A DNA stretch of 48,031 nucleotides, from positions 1 through 48,031 of IMG/VR virus record IMGVR_UViG_3300008050_000075; one strand, written 5' to 3'. This stretch comes from a virus. The notes beneath the pieces were generated by a model that saw only the letters and a program-made list of their open reading frames with translations, searched no databases and had not been told where the DNA came from. Each line of letters begins with the position of its first letter. Positions within the stretch are counted from its first letter, which is position 1. Below are positions 41,050 through 48,031 of this stretch, in pieces. A program made the position numbers and the translations under genes.

Positions 41050-41207
41050 TATTGTCTACCTTCATCTTTGCGAATGTCAGTAATTAGATTATCCATATAT
41101 TCTTCAATTGTTGTTTCATTAATATTTGATGTGCCAAAGGCCGCAAAAAATAATAATGTTATCACAATCATAAATAATAGCCATCCAAAAATCTCTGCCG
41201 TATTCAT
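41049..41207 (-). CDS. 52-residue membrane protein
   Basis: A short protein with one hydrophobic segment at about residues 5-25 (IFGWLLFMIVITLLFFAAFG) and a charged, acidic-basic tail (EEYMDNLITDIRKDEG). The ATG overlaps the stop of the exonuclease gene, and the stop overlaps the following start. A single span with a short soluble tail is all that can be said; a holin or accessory role is possible. Confidence 0.65.
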   Translation of the reverse strand: MNTAEIFGWLLFMIVITLLFFAAFGTSNINETTIEEYMDNLITDIRKDEGRQ

Positions 41208-41806
41208 CACCATTCAACCTCCATTGTTTTTACTTTTTCTTCTTCTATACTAAAGCCCTTTATCGTTTTACCTTGCCCGTGTTTCCACAAATCATAAACC
41301 AATTCACAATCTTTTAAGCAATAATCTACTACTTCTTGATAATTACCCGCTTTCCATAATGAAGGTGCTAACGCACTTTCTAATGATTTGGATTCTCCTA
41401 ATGTATTATCTACTAAGTTTTGTAGAGTAAATCTTTCTCCGTGTTGTTTAGTCATTTCTCTACTTGTATCAATATACTGCTTTTTATTTAAGAAACCCTT
41501 TATGCAATAAATATCTAATGAGTTTTTAAGAACAGGTAAATCAAATGACGCTATATTATGACCCAACAATTTAACATTCTTTTCTAACGCTTCATCTAAG
41601 TCATACTTTAATTGACGCAGGGGGAGTATTTGCACATTGGATTTCGCTACAAGATGGTTTTGAATATCCTTTTCAACATATATTTTACCAATATTGCCAT
41701 CCCATGTTGCTACTGTTGAAACTAAAAACATATGAGTATTACCCCACCCCCCTATTTCAGTAGAAAGGTTCTTGGTTTCTATATCCAATGCTAACACATT
41801 ACTCAT
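41207..41806 (-). CDS. DEDD-type 3'-5' exonuclease
   Basis: A 199-residue stand-alone RNase H-fold exonuclease. Motif I is LALDIETKN with Asp8 and Glu10, motif II is GHNIASFDLPVL, and motif III is VVDYCLKDCELVYDLW with Tyr and Asp in the DEDDy spacing. These enzymes remove 3'-end nucleotides and proofread DNA synthesis. Since only the C-terminal part of PolB is in the window, this separate exonuclease might supply its proofreading, which is inference. It overlaps its neighbours by a few bases in a - strand unit. Confidence 0.85.
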   Translation of the reverse strand: MSNVLALDIETKNLSTEIGGWGNTHMFLVSTVATWDGNIGKIYVEKDIQNHLVAKSNVQILPLRQLKYDLDEALEKNVKLLGHNIASFDLPVLKNSLDIYCIKGFLNKKQYIDTSREMTKQHGERFTLQNLVDNTLGESKSLESALAPSLWKAGNYQEVVDYCLKDCELVYDLWKHGQGKTIKGFSIEEEKVKTMEVEW

Positions 41807-42032
41807 TTTTGTTTCCCCATAATTTACTTAATACATGCTCTTCTTCACTTGAAGTATCGGGCACTTCATAGGTTGGTCTTACTAAAAAGAATACCAATTG
41901 AGAACCTGCTACATTAATACTTGTAACAGGATACCACCCATCTTCTCCTTTAGAATTAAGTATTTCTATAATTGCTTTCGGCCCTTTAGTTACATCAAAT
42001 ATAATATAATCGTTTTCAAATGTTGCTTTCAT
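41799..42032 (-). CDS. Small protein, possibly DUF4177-like
   Basis: A 77-residue protein. The segment IIEILNSKGEDGWYPVTSIN followed by strands ending FFLVRP resembles the G-x-x-G-W then lysine/arginine-proline ending of DUF4177-like proteins, which bind no known ligand. The acidic tail (SSEEEHVLSKLWGNKNE) is distinct. It lies between the helicase and exonuclease and overlaps both. Function unknown. Confidence 0.65.
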   Translation of the reverse strand: MKATFENDYIIFDVTKGPKAIIEILNSKGEDGWYPVTSINVAGSQLVFFLVRPTYEVPDTSSEEEHVLSKLWGNKNE

Positions 42033-43573
42033 TTATCTTCCTCCTTGAGTTTAAGGTATATCGTTTTCCCCTTTTTCTTTTCCTCAAATATATGTTTTAT
42101 TTTTGGGTATTGTCTGTAAAATGTTGGTGAGGGTATTGAATAATCATCCTGTAATTTCTTTTTCAAATCGTTTTTTAATGCCCACCCTTCGTTATCTTGT
42201 TTAATAGCCACATATGCACTAATGTATTTTGCAGAGCCGGTTTCTTTACCGAGAGCCGCCATTTGAACCCTTATGGCTGATTGAAGCCACGATGCAAGAC
42301 TCGTATAACCTTGTCGCACAATAACCGATGCTTGGCGAACATTTCTAGGAAAAACTACAAATTTTTCATCTGTTTCTCTACCATAACTTTCAGTTATAGC
42401 ACATAAAACGGACATTTTAACTATATATATCAAATAGTTAGTTTCAAACAACGATACAGTTTCCTGTATCTTAGGTGGTAGGTCGTCTATTTCTTTAATC
42501 ATCCCCTTATATTCCATTTTAATAGTGTCTATAATGTTAGAATCAAAGGTTATTAAATCTTCATTTGATGCTAATGTAGTATTGGCTTCCTTAACCATCT
42601 TAACAAGTTCCATTAATGCCTTAGCGTATCTATTAATTGGGTTCTTTCTAACTTCCCTAGTTCCTAAAGTTTCAATTAATTCTACTATCATTTTATCTTT
42701 AGTGTGTTTGGGTACTTCTCTCACAAACATAAACATCCTTTGTAATACTCCCTTTTGTGCAATAACATAAGTTAATTGTTCGGGAACATAACTTGTGCCC
42801 CACACAGAACGCTGACAATCGCAAATAATGTCCTCACCACTACCTGCTAATCTCTTTTTGATAATATAACCATCTGTTGAAAGGGTATTCATTAACTTTT
42901 GAAAATACACTACCACATTTTCTTTATGCGACCTTTGGCTAAAGATACCGCTAGATTCAAACTCATCAAAAAGAATTAATCCACTCCCAACCAAAGCACC
43001 GTCTACTTGTTGAGGTATTGTTTTGAGTTCATCATTATTTTCATCGTTTCTATCATAGAGGGGATTATCTACCATAACATGAGTGCCCACCATAGCCGCA
43101 TCAGTAATATCTAATGTATCAAAGATAGTGTAGTTAAGGTTATATGTAGCATTCATATAAGAAAAGAGTTTGTTACATATTTCAGCATAAAAATCGTTCA
43201 AAACTGATTTGCCCGTTCTTGCAGTTTGAATCCAACAAACATGAACCCTTGAATCTTCAACGGTGTTTCCGAAGGGAATAGTAACATCATCCTTTAATGC
43301 TTGCCCAAGTATATTGAAATAGGCCAAAATAGAAGCATACCTATTTTCTTTAGACACCATATTAAAATCGTCTGCCCATTGTTCTATAAGTGCGGGGAGT
43401 TTTTCTATCTCAATCTCCTCATGGGTAATATCCTTTTCTAAATTGCGCTCATTTTCTAAATTGCGTTCATACTCATCATTTTCTCTTTCATTTTCATTTG
43501 AGGGTGCGTTTAATTCATCCCAATCTTTAGAATCATCATATTCGCCCCATTCAATGTTATCATCATCTGTCAT
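42029..43573 (-). CDS. AAA+/P-loop replicative helicase-like ATPase with winged helix
   Basis: A 514-residue ATPase likely to unwind DNA at the viral fork. Walker A is QTARTGKS at about 116-123 and Walker B is LILFDEFESSG. The central region resembles DUF3987/MCM-like primase-associated helicases rather than DnaB, although the family is not certain. The last 70 residues (SAKYISAYVAIKQDNEGWAL, then KKLQDDYSIPSPTFYRQYPK) look like a winged helix. The N-terminus is acidic with a small tandem repeat (ERNLENERNLE). It is two genes away from the primase in the same unit, which supports the role. Confidence 0.82.
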   Translation of the reverse strand: MTDDDNIEWGEYDDSKDWDELNAPSNENERENDEYERNLENERNLEKDITHEEIEIEKLPALIEQWADDFNMVSKENRYASILAYFNILGQALKDDVTIPFGNTVEDSRVHVCWIQTARTGKSVLNDFYAEICNKLFSYMNATYNLNYTIFDTLDITDAAMVGTHVMVDNPLYDRNDENNDELKTIPQQVDGALVGSGLILFDEFESSGIFSQRSHKENVVVYFQKLMNTLSTDGYIIKKRLAGSGEDIICDCQRSVWGTSYVPEQLTYVIAQKGVLQRMFMFVREVPKHTKDKMIVELIETLGTREVRKNPINRYAKALMELVKMVKEANTTLASNEDLITFDSNIIDTIKMEYKGMIKEIDDLPPKIQETVSLFETNYLIYIVKMSVLCAITESYGRETDEKFVVFPRNVRQASVIVRQGYTSLASWLQSAIRVQMAALGKETGSAKYISAYVAIKQDNEGWALKNDLKKKLQDDYSIPSPTFYRQYPKIKHIFEEKKKGKTIYLKLKEEDK

Positions 43574-44253
43574 TGTTTCACCTTCTTGTTTGAATTAAAT
43601 ACAGTAATTATCCTTGAGGCAATTACTCTCCCTATGCCTTCTATTATTGTTAATTCATCAATAGTAGAATTGGCTATTTCTATTATACAACCAAACTTCT
43701 CTAAAAGTTGTTCAGCCTTTACTTTACTTACCCCTTTCACGGTCATTAGAGCATCTAATCTAACATCAATCGTGGCTACCCTTTTTAGTAGGCGGGGGTC
43801 TATTATCTTCCTTTCAACAGGTATCATTTTAGCCAAAGTTACTAAGTGGTCTGCCGCTTCTTGGGGGGTTCTACATAATATTACTTCGGCATTATAATCT
43901 AATCTAATTCTTCCTATCCCTCCTTTGAAAGCGTTAGAAAAACGCACCTTATTCCTTGCCGTATCGCCGCCCATATATTTAGTAGCCTTTAGTGCCTTCT
44001 CAAGACTACCATGAATAATGACAAAGTTTTTATTAAAATGTTCTTCCATATTACTCAATTGAACCCAAATCCTTCTATTCAAAACTGACTGTATGAAATC
44101 CTCTACTGATTTTGCTTCAAAACAAACATCCCCTATCACATAATCCCCCACTTCCATCCATACTTTCTCATATTGTATTAGATTCTTTTTAACCTTAGCA
44201 ATAATACACTCGGTCAAAAGGGATTTTTCCCTACTATCAATAAAAAGTTTCAT
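43570..44253 (-). CDS. ERCC4/XPF-type nuclease with C-terminal HhH domain
   Basis: A 227-residue nuclease of the XPF/Mus81/Hef class, which cuts branched or flapped DNA. FIDSREK at 4-10 and GDYVIGDVCFEAKS at 36-49 form the nuclease site; the usual E-R-K is E46-A47-K48, so the middle arginine is replaced. The C-terminal part has tandem helix-hairpin-helix segments (VKGVSKVKAEQLL and IIEGIGRVIASRI). The ATG at 44253 follows GGAGGACATTTA and overlaps the primase stop; a longer start is rejected. Most likely used in replication or recombination. Confidence 0.88.
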   Translation of the reverse strand: MKLFIDSREKSLLTECIIAKVKKNLIQYEKVWMEVGDYVIGDVCFEAKSVEDFIQSVLNRRIWVQLSNMEEHFNKNFVIIHGSLEKALKATKYMGGDTARNKVRFSNAFKGGIGRIRLDYNAEVILCRTPQEAADHLVTLAKMIPVERKIIDPRLLKRVATIDVRLDALMTVKGVSKVKAEQLLEKFGCIIEIANSTIDELTIIEGIGRVIASRIITVFNSNKKVKQ

Positions 44254-45284
44254 TAAATGTCCTCCAAAGACGGATAACGCCAACACTTGCCTACGCAATA
44301 ATCTTCACTAATTAGTTTGCTACAAGAAGGGGCAACATAGCCCCCTTGATTGCTAATGGTAAACCAAGCATGGTTTCTTGTTATATTCTCGTTCCAATCC
44401 AACCATACACCATCCTTAGCCGCTATCACTTTAATTTCTTCCATTACCGCTTCTAGCATATACCTATGTATTTCTTCATCATATATTTTAACGCTTACAC
44501 CAAAAGTATTGGCTAAAACTGTCCTATACCATGAAACAAGATAATAGCGAGTAGTGTGGGTCGGATTTTCAATCATAATACTATTAGCCAAGCAAGGGAT
44601 TAGGGGTATTTTACCTACCTTTTCAACATTGGCTAAATTGATAGGGGTTGCTTCAAAAGAAGGGGCTTTGGGGAACACTACCTTCCTATTCCCATACCTA
44701 ATAGGGGGGTTAAAGAGGGGTGTTTGCGCCAAAGAAAGGATATTTGAGAGGGGTTTTTCTAAACAATCCTTTTCTAGGGGTACACAGTAAAGACAATCAT
44801 TTGTTTTCATATTAACAGTATTGGGGATTCTTCTTAATCTTCTAGCATCAATTACACGATTATCCAATGTTCCCATAATGGTTAATGTATTTAGTTTATT
44901 GAAAAACTGTCTAATATTTCTCATCGTATCGGTCTGTTCTCCATACACAAAAATATGAAATCCATTTCCACTAAAGGCCATATCAAATATATAATTTTCA
45001 TGTAGTAGTTTGTTGGCTACTATTTTGAAATCAGTAAAGGAATCTTCAAGTGGTTTGGTATGTGAATCAAAATCTAAAAACAACCTATCTAATATTACAG
45101 AAGAAACTACTGCTTGTGAAGAACCAAAGTGTTTGTAATCATATACAGAAGTATAACAATTAACTTTATTATTATTCATCTCTATAAACTTAACATACTC
45201 ATCCTTTGTATAAACAATTTGACGGGGCAAAGACCCCTTACCCTGCAAGTGGCTTCCCCACCACACTTCTCTAGGAAACTTCAT
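44253..45284 (-). CDS. Primase: PriS-type catalytic domain fused to PriL-like Fe-S domain
   Basis: A 343-residue archaeo-eukaryotic primase. The catalytic residues are in LFLDFDSH (Asp71, Asp73), SGNGFH at 105-110 and D146 before the basic RRLRRIPNTVN. A small cysteine group C164-x2-C167-x6-C174 may bind zinc. The C-terminal part has C231, C321, C330 and C334, the spacing of the PriL [4Fe-4S] domain, and a WYR-containing helix before it. A fused PriS/PriL enzyme makes RNA or DNA primers in one chain. The start overlaps the preceding stop as ATGA. Confidence 0.88.
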   Translation of the reverse strand: MKFPREVWWGSHLQGKGSLPRQIVYTKDEYVKFIEMNNNKVNCYTSVYDYKHFGSSQAVVSSVILDRLFLDFDSHTKPLEDSFTDFKIVANKLLHENYIFDMAFSGNGFHIFVYGEQTDTMRNIRQFFNKLNTLTIMGTLDNRVIDARRLRRIPNTVNMKTNDCLYCVPLEKDCLEKPLSNILSLAQTPLFNPPIRYGNRKVVFPKAPSFEATPINLANVEKVGKIPLIPCLANSIMIENPTHTTRYYLVSWYRTVLANTFGVSVKIYDEEIHRYMLEAVMEEIKVIAAKDGVWLDWNENITRNHAWFTISNQGGYVAPSCSKLISEDYCVGKCWRYPSLEDI

Positions 45285-45709
45285 AGTCTTTCAACGCCCT
45301 TAATTGCTCTAATTCCATCATTAGTTTTCTTAGATGTTTTTTTGGTTGTAGATGTTTTTTTAACTGTTCCTTTTGGTGTTTTTAATGAAGATGGTTTTTC
45401 CGCTTTAACTTGAACGGGTTTCGGTTTAGGGGTTTCACCGAAGGAAACCTTTGCCGCTTCAAAGTGAGTTTGAAATTGTTTTTTCACCTGTTTAACTAAG
45501 CATGATATAGCCACTTCTCTATATAATGAACCAAAGGTTTTCTCAGGTTCTATTTCCCAATCCCATATTAAATTAATTATATCTTGAGGGGGTAAGGTAT
45601 TAAAAAGACCATCAGCCATTTTTTCACTAACCTCATTAAGTTGCAATAACTCAGCAAAGCCCCATTCTTTTTCAATTATCATATTTGTTATTTGTTCTTT
45701 TATATCCAT
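45281..45709 (-). CDS. Protein with helical domain and Lys/Thr-rich tail
   Basis: A 142-residue protein. The first 95 residues are helical and acidic (EWGFAELLQLNEVSEKMADG). The rest is basic and low-complexity (TPKGTVKKTSTTKKTSKKTN), which suggests contact with DNA. The ATG at 45709 overlaps the stop of the nuclease gene as TAATG; an in-frame TTG at 45718 is less likely. It lies between the Cas4-like nuclease and the primase, so a replication accessory role is likely by context, with no family known. Confidence 0.7.
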   Translation of the reverse strand: MDIKEQITNMIIEKEWGFAELLQLNEVSEKMADGLFNTLPPQDIINLIWDWEIEPEKTFGSLYREVAISCLVKQVKKQFQTHFEAAKVSFGETPKPKPVQVKAEKPSSLKTPKGTVKKTSTTKKTSKKTNDGIRAIKGVERL

Positions 45710-46677
45710 TAAAACCAATCTCCATTTAATTCATCTCTTACTGCCGCAGGGCATATTGTATTAAAACTACAATGTGGTAAGCACTTTTTATGAAAGAAAG
45801 ACGGGGAAAAATTATCGGGCATATTATGTTCATAATTATATAATAATTTAGCAATAGCCTTCTTTACCGATGTAGTAGATGCTTTCTTTCTTTCTTCTAC
45901 TGTAATGTGATTTGCGGCGGGATAATACCAACCCCAATGTGTAATAGGTAAATATGGTAGATTATGTTTTTCATATTCATCTTGCCCAACATTCTCTAAT
46001 AGTAAAGCATAGAAAGCCATTTCAGCCCTCATAGAGGATATTTTTGAATCCTTCCATTTACCTGTTTTTAATTCCATAGGGATTAAAGAATCGCCTTCTC
46101 TAAATATCCTATCAATAATACCCTGCAAATGCACAACATATGCTTGAGTTAATGGGTATCTTGGATTAGTGTTTGGTAGAATAATAATATCGGTATCTAA
46201 TTGTACTTCATTCCCAACAGGGACAAAATTACTCAATGTGCCGCTTTCCTTTTCTTCAATAAAACGGTTCGCTTCATAAGTAACCATTTGTTGCGTTAAA
46301 TCAACATACTCATCTATGGGGAATAAAGATGTAAAGTAAACCCTTAATTCTTCAAAGGTCATACCCTCAGCCTTTTTAACATCCACAGAATTATAAAAAT
46401 CCTCATGTGAATTATGAACGACTGTTCCCTTGAGCATCACGGGGGTTTGTTCTTGCCTTCTCCTATCTAAATATTGATATTCATATTGTTTGTTACACCA
46501 AGTAAAACAACCCAAAGACGACTTACTTATTTTTAATATAGGTTTAGAAGGGTCGTTAGCATAGTCAGCATTCCAATGGTAAGTATAAGAATCATTCTCA
46601 TTCACCTTTGGTCTAACCCAAACACCATTTTCTTCATGCCCGTAAACTCTTTTATTTATTTTAGTATTATCTGTCAT
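45709..46677 (-). CDS. Cas4/AddB-like PD-(D/E)XK nuclease with Fe-S cluster
   Basis: A 322-residue nuclease. The PD-(D/E)XK core is visible as His88 in GTVVHNSHEDF, Asp in GIIDRIF, and ELKTGKW. A likely [4Fe-4S] cluster is formed by Cys61 with Cys299, Cys303 and Cys309 (CLPHCSFNTIC), as in Cas4 and AddB. Such enzymes resect DNA ends. No Cas1 or Cas2 is present, so a CRISPR role is not supported. The ATG at 46677 after GGAGAGTGG overlaps the PolB stop; a longer frame extends into that gene and is rejected. Confidence 0.87.
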   Translation of the reverse strand: MTDNTKINKRVYGHEENGVWVRPKVNENDSYTYHWNADYANDPSKPILKISKSSLGCFTWCNKQYEYQYLDRRRQEQTPVMLKGTVVHNSHEDFYNSVDVKKAEGMTFEELRVYFTSLFPIDEYVDLTQQMVTYEANRFIEEKESGTLSNFVPVGNEVQLDTDIIILPNTNPRYPLTQAYVVHLQGIIDRIFREGDSLIPMELKTGKWKDSKISSMRAEMAFYALLLENVGQDEYEKHNLPYLPITHWGWYYPAANHITVEERKKASTTSVKKAIAKLLYNYEHNMPDNFSPSFFHKKCLPHCSFNTICPAAVRDELNGDWF

Positions 46678-47465
46678 TAAAACCACTCTCCTAAAGTTTT
46701 TTGGCTTTCGTCTAACATTACATTCTTTATTTCCCACCCCATAGCCAAAAAAATAGGGGTGGCTTTTTTTATTATATCTTCTGCATAAGCACCCCAATGG
46801 GGATGGTATTTAGCAGTAATCTCTTTCTTTTCTCTAAAGGCTACAAAAACAGCCCTTCTTTCTCTACCACTAGGTAGGATAATATATTGAGGGCCATCAA
46901 TGTTAGCGCACTTGAAATACACAAAGGAATCAGTAATTGGGTTTTCGGGATTGATGTGTTGGTTATAGTAACATACACCAGCGATTCCCCCTGCAATACT
47001 TTTATAATTATTCAAATCATTATGAAGCCTTCCTCTTTTTATAACTTCATCTAAGGATATTCTACCCTTTTTTACATTATTATACTGTTCCCTACAAAAA
47101 GAAACTATATCGTGTTCAGTATCACCCGAAGCCCATTTTTTTAACAAATCACTTTGAAACTTTTTACTCATGGGGCTTTCGGATATACGCTTCATAGAAA
47201 AACCTGTTACTATGAATTGTTCTTCCTCTAACCATTCTCCATCCTTCCAAGTAATGAAACCAGCATTTCTATTTTTAGAAGCACCTACGCCCAAAGTAGA
47301 ATAAAACTTTTCAAATTCTAATTTAACAGGGTGTTCTTCTAATCCCATCACATTAGGGAAAACAGTTTTCATATGTTTATCTATCTTATCACATATTTCC
47401 TGTGCTTTTTCTACATCATTAATTTGTACAAATATTGAATCTGTATGCCCATAAACTACTTTCAT
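46677..47465 (-). CDS. C-terminal part of a split family B DNA polymerase (motif C and thumb)
   Basis: A 262-residue protein beginning MKVVYGHTDSIFVQ. YGHTDS is PolB motif C (usually YGDTDS), keeping the second, essential Asp. Then come GASKNRNAGFI (KKRYAG-like), and thumb patterns KRISESPMSKKFQSDLL and RGRLHNDLNNYKS. The fingers, motifs A and B and exonuclease are absent. The ATG is at 47465, after GGAGAGAGTGAG, with no longer version supported. It must pair with an N-terminal polypeptide from elsewhere, presumably beyond the right edge. A two-gene PolB broken before motif C is known in Methanothermobacter. Confidence 0.85.
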   Translation of the reverse strand: MKVVYGHTDSIFVQINDVEKAQEICDKIDKHMKTVFPNVMGLEEHPVKLEFEKFYSTLGVGASKNRNAGFITWKDGEWLEEEQFIVTGFSMKRISESPMSKKFQSDLLKKWASGDTEHDIVSFCREQYNNVKKGRISLDEVIKRGRLHNDLNNYKSIAGGIAGVCYYNQHINPENPITDSFVYFKCANIDGPQYIILPSGRERRAVFVAFREKKEITAKYHPHWGAYAEDIIKKATPIFLAMGWEIKNVMLDESQKTLGEWF

Positions 47466-47466
47466 T

Positions 47467-47676
47467 TTACTCACTCTCTCCTTTTGATACCCAAAAACCA
47501 TTACCCGTTTTATCATATCCGTTTCTTCTAAGAATATGCCCTATTAATCTTGTCCCACCAATATACATACTATTACCATATTTATCTAAAATGCGGTCAA
47601 GAATCATTTGTGCGGTAAACTCTCCCTGCACTAATTTAGCCTCCTTTATTACCCAACGGTGAAAAGTCTTAGTCAT
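47467..47676 (-). CDS. Small winged-helix protein
   Basis: A 69-residue protein with a winged-helix pattern: helices HRWVIKEAKLVQ, FTAQMILDRILDKY and TRLIGHILRRNG, then the wing YDKTGNGFWVSK. The size fits a DNA-binding transcription or replication factor. It stands between the PolB fragment and a membrane protein, overlapping the former's start signal. It is placed where an unbroken PolB would continue, so it is either an insertion or simply an adjacent gene. Confidence 0.7.
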   Translation of the reverse strand: MTKTFHRWVIKEAKLVQGEFTAQMILDRILDKYGNSMYIGGTRLIGHILRRNGYDKTGNGFWVSKGESE

Positions 47677-47882
47677 ATACCCGCCATCTCCATTAATGCT
47701 AATTCCATCCCGAATATCATAGCGAAAAATAAACCAATGGTTTCAATGTTTCGGGCTATAAAGGGCAGTATTGTTGCCTTGCCTTCTTCTATTCTTCTTT
47801 TCATAATGTATGCTGATATTCCTACGCTTAAGGCACCTAATACTTGTATTGGTATTGTTTTTATTATTTCTATTACTATCAT
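47673..47882 (-). CDS. Small protein with two membrane segments
   Basis: A 69-residue protein with hydrophobic stretches at about residues 2-25 (VIEIIKTIPIQVLGALSVGI) and 42-69 (IETIGLFFAMIFGMELALME), separated by a charged loop (KRRIEEGK). GGAGG precedes the ATG by 4 nt. Two overlaps, with the winged-helix gene and with the upstream frame, indicate an operon. Function unknown; holin-like topology is possible. Confidence 0.65.
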   Translation of the reverse strand: MIVIEIIKTIPIQVLGALSVGISAYIMKRRIEEGKATILPFIARNIETIGLFFAMIFGMELALMEMAGI

Positions 47883-48025
47883 TCTTCTTCCTCCTCTTGG
47901 TTATTCATTTTTCCTCTCCATATTAAACAACCTCTTTCCTCTTTTATATATTCCCCGTTTAGTTTTATTTTAGTTTGAATCTTTCTTACACAAGGAAACC
48001 ACCCTCTATCTTTATAGAAAGACAT
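47879..48025 (-). CDS. Short reading frame at the right window edge
   Basis: A 48-residue frame, MSFYKDRGWFPCVRKIQTKI at its start, with Cys12 and Cys33 and a C-terminal run of Glu. Its TGA overlaps the next ATG as ATGA, which supports translation. It is not clear that the ATG at 48025 is the true start, because the frame stays open to the window edge, and a TATA-like sequence lies within it. It may be the end of a longer gene. Confidence 0.4.
   Translation of the reverse strand: MSFYKDRGWFPCVRKIQTKIKLNGEYIKEERGCLIWRGKMNNQEEEEE
47942..47951 (-). promoter_or_regulatory. Candidate TATA box on the - strand
   Basis: TATATAAAAG (read on the - strand) is a strong archaeal TATA-like sequence. At normal spacing transcription would start near 47918 and leave about 36 bases of leader with GGAGG before the membrane protein gene at 47882. 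It lies inside a short reading frame, which weakens that frame or means the two overlap. Confidence 0.45.
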
Positions 48026-48031
48026 TCCCAA

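What the first reader, a model, noticed from the sequence alone, without database searches (positions are those of the whole stretch)
46677..47676. PolB gene broken immediately before motif C, with a winged-helix gene in the gap
The piece starts five residues before YGHTDS, the place where PolB inteins also insert and where Methanothermobacter PolB is divided. No C-intein precedes it (no His-Asn end), so trans-splicing is not indicated; two subunits must assemble. The first Asp of motif C is His.
Basis: partly seen in the sequence, partly recalled or inferred. Interest (0 to 1): 0.72.

Follow-up and report, generated by a model that had tools for sequence, protein, structure and literature searches.

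The report
Two-gene viral DNA polymerase, magrovirus-like
This virus, a relative of the abundant marine archaeal viruses called magroviruses, carries its DNA-copying enzyme as two separate proteins cut just before a core catalytic motif; relatives show that the cut happened once, long ago, in a lineage that had already lost one of the enzyme's usual active-site acids.

Summary
ORF 46677-47465 (-) is the C-terminal third of a family B DNA polymerase, starting MKVVYGHTDS; a small gene ends 2 bases upstream. The window is a 48 kb virus fragment, so the N-terminal gene would lie beyond base 48031. In IMG/VR relatives it is there: 114 distinct split pairs, none fused, N-part about 550 aa ending after motif B, gap -4 to 2392 nt. 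No residues are lost at the cut, there are no intein remnants, and both halves are under strong purifying selection (dN/dS about 0.07). A well-supported tree puts all split forms in one clade; its sister is a marine clade of intact PolBs with the same downstream genes. The first motif-C Asp is His in every split form and His or Phe in every intact sister, but Asp in haloviruses, so the Asp was lost before the gene split. All other catalytic carboxylates examined are kept. Most likely this is an active two-subunit polymerase without splicing. A magrovirus genome is already drawn with PolB-NTD/CTD by ICTV, so the split itself is not new; the single origin, intact sisters, prior Asp loss and gene-collecting gap are additions I did not find in the papers I could search.

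The parts
46677..47465 (-). PolB C-terminal subunit (262 aa): palm part with motif C (YGHTDS) and KNRNAG motif, plus thumb
   Evidence: Pfam/PHROG PolB; 108 distinct homologous C-parts with the same start; PDB profile and fold matches to PolB
47436..47453 (-). Motif C, YGHTDS; first Asp replaced by His, second Asp kept
   Evidence: sequence; His in 157/157 split loci
47467..47676 (-). Small gene (69 aa) directly before the C-part, possibly helix-turn-helix/winged helix; lies in the N-C gap
   Evidence: homologues in the gap of relatives; related to the gap gene of L002/L005/L007 by profile comparison (hhalign 95.7%); fold class not confirmed
47673..47882 (-). Small ORF (69 aa, hydrophobic), in the gap; no homologue among the loci fetched
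47879..48031 (-). ORF (50 aa from a TTG) reaching the end of the record; the PolB N-part is expected further right, outside the window
   Evidence: gene order of relatives
45709..46797 (-). PD-(D/E)XK nuclease, RecB/Cas4/Exo5-like; the mechanical ORF start is probably too early
   Evidence: Pfam; follows PolB in split and intact relatives
44253..45284 (-). Primase-like protein
   Evidence: PHROG primase 6e-5; conserved place
43570..44298 (-). ERCC4-type nuclease with helix-hairpin-helix
   Evidence: Pfam; conserved place
42029..43573 (-). Replication-module protein with a P-loop-like stretch, possibly a helicase; no Pfam match
   Evidence: conserved place; function by inspection only
41207..41806 (-). 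Stand-alone 3'-5' exonuclease, DnaQ-like
   Evidence: Pfam/PHROG; conserved place

Best explanation
The ORF is the C-terminal subunit of a two-gene family B DNA polymerase of a tailed virus related to magroviruses (viruses of marine archaea). The N-subunit (exonuclease, fingers, palm with motifs A and B) is encoded upstream, outside the window. Most likely the two proteins associate without splicing: the palm is completed only when the C-subunit brings the strand with motif C next to motif A, so one active site is shared by two polypeptides. The enzyme keeps proofreading. It works with a single motif-C Asp, the usual first Asp having been replaced (most simply by His) in an intact ancestor before the gene was split once. 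Small genes then settled in the gap. Shown here: the split, its conservation, single origin, colinearity, purifying selection, and the order of Asp loss and split. Inferred: subunit assembly, activity, and the N-part of this particular virus.
For: 114 distinct split pairs and no fused form in the clade. The N-part ends after motif B and the C-part starts at the next position with no missing residues against intact sisters. The N profile covers Pfu-type PolB to about residue 524 and the C profile starts at about 536. Folded models of both halves match PolB structures; in the C model residues 1-94 (palm part) have pLDDT mostly under 50 while the thumb is confident, as expected if the palm part needs its partner. 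dN/dS is 0.071 (C) and 0.065 (N). Motif A Asp, second motif C Asp and the exonuclease carboxylates examined are 100% conserved. Split clade support 100, one change on the tree. Same replication gene order in split and intact sisters. Precedents: phage 25 split gp43 copurifies and is active (PMC2988022); PolB of M. thermautotrophicus is two polypeptides (PMC7776575); primer-independent PolBs lack the first Asp yet are active (PMC7544198).
Against: The N-part of this virus is not in the record. No complex was modelled or measured. Models rest on shallow alignments (16 and 14 sequences; mean pLDDT 65 and 60), so low palm confidence may be technical. All relatives are metagenomic.
Confidence: 0.9

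Rival explanations
1. The two halves are joined after translation by a split intein, as in Nanoarchaeum equitans PolB.
For: Inteins occur in PolB genes; one sits in motif C of a halovirus-type PolB (L211). N. equitans PolB is split with intein parts (PMC4104785).
Against: C-parts begin MKVVY with no intein C-half, and N-parts end ...KELEV-stop or similar with no intein N-half in all inspected relatives. The cut lies about ten residues before the L211 intein site.
Confidence: 0.02
2. The polymerase is inactivated (lost Asp, broken gene) and is decaying or has a structural role.
For: First motif-C Asp lost; gene broken; archaeal PolB2 with a similar change was once considered inactivated (PMC7544198).
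Against: dN/dS about 0.07 in both halves; motif A Asp, second motif C Asp and the exonuclease residues examined invariant; no further PF00136 polymerase in near-complete relatives; other PolBs without the first Asp are active.
Confidence: 0.06
3. The break is an assembly or sequencing error, or a frameshift in one gene.
For: Metagenomic contigs do carry frameshifts (for example L170, L289).
Against: Same break with the same start codon in 114 distinct pairs from many samples, with unrelated genes of up to 2.4 kb between the parts.
Confidence: 0.01

Closest known systems
Magrovirus PolB-NTD/CTD, Poseidoniales virus YSH_150918 (Aoguangviridae, ON649702; PMC10768690)
   Same: Family B polymerase drawn as N- and C-terminal genes in a tailed archaeal virus with a genome of about 92 kb and similar replication genes
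   Different: Record not in my collections, so not aligned. The profile does not discuss the Asp change, the origin of the split or the gap genes
Split PolB3 of Methanobacteriales (M. thermautotrophicus; PMC7776575, PMC4104785)
   Same: PolB as two polypeptides
   Different: Cellular PolB3; proposed to come from erratic intein excision. Its exact cut site was not tested here
gp43A/gp43B of Aeromonas phages 25 and 44RR (PMC2988022)
   Same: Viral PolB split by intervening DNA; the phage 25 halves copurify and polymerise
   Different: Phages of bacteria; homing endonuclease or untranslated insert in the gap; a different viral lineage
Haloarchaeal tailed-virus PolB (group B5; HVTV-1, HRTV-27; PMC7544198)
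   Same: Closest isolated relatives by sequence, about 20-26% identity
   Different: Intact gene, motif C YGDTDS
Archaeal PolB2, PolB_SITDG and primer-independent PolB (PMC7544198)
   Same: First motif-C Asp missing (conserved His in PolB2, hydrophobic residue in SITDG), as in the split clade (His) and the intact sisters (His or Phe)
   Different: Different PolB lineages; the cited paper does not describe them as split

Membership tests
Family B DNA polymerase | Sequence match to the DNA_pol_B family | tested here: met
   54 bits, over the cut-off, positions 218-406
Family B DNA polymerase | Motif A Asp, motif B Lys, exonuclease residues (N-part) | tested here: met
   invariant in 157 split loci; in relatives only, as the window lacks the N-part
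Family B DNA polymerase | Two Asp in motif C (DTD) | tested here: not met
   HTD in all split forms; this feature is not universal in the family
Split (two-subunit) PolB | Two genes together cover one PolB without loss | tested here: met
   colinear junction, complementary profile coverage; for relatives, N-part of the window not held
Split (two-subunit) PolB | The two proteins bind and polymerise | not testable with these tools
   needs expression and assay
Split-intein PolB (N. equitans type) | Intein halves at the ends of the fragments | tested here: not met
   none at either end
Magrovirales | Tailed virus of 90-110 kb; opposed replication and virion gene clusters; PolB, primase, RecB-like nuclease; often chaperonin | tested here: inconclusive
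   long relatives mostly 87-96 kb, chaperonin in 7 of 11 records searched, PHROG terminase in the window, two opposed gene blocks in the window, nuclease and primase-like genes; MCM weak or absent; no reference magrovirus genome was available for direct comparison

The most novel reading that the evidence does not exclude
The small DNA-binding-like protein encoded between the halves, whose gene adjoins or overlaps both in the window's close relatives (L002, L003, L005, L007), is a third subunit that bridges or regulates a polymerase whose active site uses a motif-C His.
Probability: 0.1. Interest if true: 0.65.

Novelty: new variant of a known kind. Interest (0 to 1): 0.5.

Why it matters
It shows a replicase catalytic centre divided between two proteins as a stable, old state in a large group of mostly marine viruses. 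With intact sisters in the same gene order, it gives a natural before-and-after pair to test what splitting costs, and whether the first motif-C Asp, usually counted in the catalytic triad, can be replaced by His or Phe. Practically, PolB marker surveys that assume one gene may count these viruses wrongly.

Tried and rejected
Frameshift or assembly error: rejected by many independent relatives. Intact second PolB: searched in about 20 long records of split relatives, none found beyond the N and C matches (hits there that seem to span both parts contain stops and run across the gap). Intein trans-splicing: no intein ends. The split as cause of the Asp loss: rejected, since intact sisters have His or Phe. 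Small gap gene as cause of the split: not decidable; its family or the related family c2 is in 39 of 111 distinct gaps, including deep branches. An HNH endonuclease is in 6 loci only, so it is not a likely ancestral cause. Homologues of the window's last two ORFs: none. Reference magrovirus genomes and the Philosof, Zhou and Prabhu papers not held. A single genome-contig hit (L195) lies in a Maricaulis MAG, probably a mis-binned viral contig.

Full report
Observation. The window is a whole IMG/VR virus record of 48,031 bases, linear, very likely a fragment. The rightmost genes run leftwards. ORF 46677-47465 starts MKVVYGHTDS and matches the last part of Pfam DNA_pol_B (54 bits, profile 218-406 of 453) and two PHROG DNA polymerase families. 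An earlier in-frame ATG exists (47516), but relatives have their first start at MKVVY. Directly before it, 47467-47676 encodes 69 aa; its TAA is one base from the polymerase ATG. Two more small ORFs follow up to the record end. Only the count 'five residues' is off by one, and the winged-helix label stays unproven.

Relatives. The C-part found 36 loci in IMG/VR, and profile searches found hundreds more, of which the best 80 each were fetched. In 162 loci both parts could be read on one contig: N-part about 540-585 aa when complete, C-part about 260-345 aa, never fused. Some loci are repeat fetches of the same contig; removing repeats leaves 114 distinct pairs, and 111 gaps range from -4 to 2392 nt, median 459. 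In L152, L155 and L190 the two genes overlap by four bases. The gap carries 54 clusters of small genes, among them the window's small-gene family (26 of 111 distinct gaps) and a related family, c2 (13 of 111; related by hhalign at 95.7%). c2 is present in deep branches (L130, L133) and in the window's nearest relatives, so such a gene may be an old resident of the gap, but many lineages lack it.

Anatomy. N-parts end after motif B in the helix before the motif-C strand (for example ...ITASAREAIRLAAFKAKELEV). The C-part opens with that strand. Against intact sisters the two pieces abut with no residue missing; the start Met is the only addition. By profile, the N-parts match archaeal PolB structures up to about residue 524 and the C-parts from about 536. 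Predicted models of each half match PolB folds. In the C-part model the thumb is confident and the palm stretch with motif C is not, which fits a strand that needs the other subunit; the alignment is shallow, so this is weak evidence. Both halves evolve under strong constraint: median dN/dS 0.071 and 0.065.

Intact sisters. A scan with halovirus PolBs and follow-up scans found intact PolBs of about 770-800 aa that score 228-297 bits with the N-part profile (halovirus and other PolBs: up to about 127). They include 36 distinct sequences. The same genes follow PolB in the same order in both groups: PD-(D/E)XK nuclease, primase-like protein, ERCC4 nuclease, possible helicase and, where the contig reaches, exonuclease. 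A maximum-likelihood tree of 75 rows, rooted on haloviruses, places all split forms, the window included, in one clade (support 100) and all these intact forms in its sister clade (support 100), with a single change between the states. This is a quick tree with LG+G4, and the root rests on distant haloviruses.

Motif C. Haloviruses have YGDTDS. Split forms have YGHTDS or YAHTDS (157 of 157 loci). Intact sisters have YGHTDS (16 loci) or YGFTDS (43 loci), with His on the outer branches and Phe nested inside. The first Asp was therefore lost before the split. The second Asp, the motif A Asp, the motif B Lys and the exonuclease residues examined are invariant. The first Asp is counted in the catalytic triad of RB69 polymerase (PMC3792054), yet primer-independent PolBs lack it and are active, PolB2 has a conserved His in motif C, and PolB_SITDG has a hydrophobic residue there (PMC7544198). 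So activity is the likelier reading.

Origin of the cut. Split PolB3 of Methanobacteriales was proposed to come from erratic intein excision, and N. equitans uses a split intein (PMC4104785). A halovirus-type PolB, L211, carries an intein in motif C after YGDTD. That is close to the present cut but about ten residues downstream, and no intein remnant is seen, so a relation to inteins is possible but not shown. Insertion of a mobile gene, as in T4-type phages (PMC2988022), is equally possible; an HNH gene lies in the gap of six loci only.

What is known. ICTV's profile of Aoguangviridae labels PolB-NTD and PolB-CTD in a magrovirus (PMC10768690). The relatives here fit magroviruses in size, gene content and frequent chaperonin, though no reference genome could be aligned. 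The split is therefore known at least as an annotation. I found no paper in the held library that discusses its single origin, the intact sisters or the prior Asp loss; key papers (Philosof 2017, Zhou 2023, Prabhu 2025) were not held and may do so.

Verdict. Confirmed observation, largely correct interpretation, modest novelty. The most useful new point is the pair of sister clades, intact and split, both with a motif C lacking its first Asp.

Noticed in passing
L211:3938-7429: Halovirus-type PolB of 1163 aa with an apparent intein of about 325 aa inside motif C (YGDTD / SVPAEEP...MIVHN / SNYIKF).
   Followed up: partly
gap between PolB parts in L002-L194: The gap acts as a landing place for small genes: 54 clusters, including coiled-coil, cysteine-rich, MazG-like and HNH endonuclease genes.
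   Followed up: partly
window 46677-47465 and split relatives: The conserved KKRYAG-type palm motif reads KNRNAG in nearly all split forms, Tyr replaced by Asn; intact sisters mostly keep KNRYAG or KNRYV.
   Followed up: no
window 41207-41806: A separate DnaQ-like 3'-5' exonuclease is kept near a PolB whose own exonuclease residues are intact in relatives.
   Followed up: no
L170:4065-5796: N-part in three reading frames relative to L171; sequencing errors or a further break.
   Followed up: partly
C-parts of the marine subgroup (e.g. L009, L032): An insertion with several Cys (zinc-finger-like) in the thumb region, absent from the window and its close relatives.
   Followed up: no
L195 (NZMJ01000151.1): Only genome-contig hit, in a Maricaulis MAG; probably a viral contig binned by mistake.
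   Followed up: no
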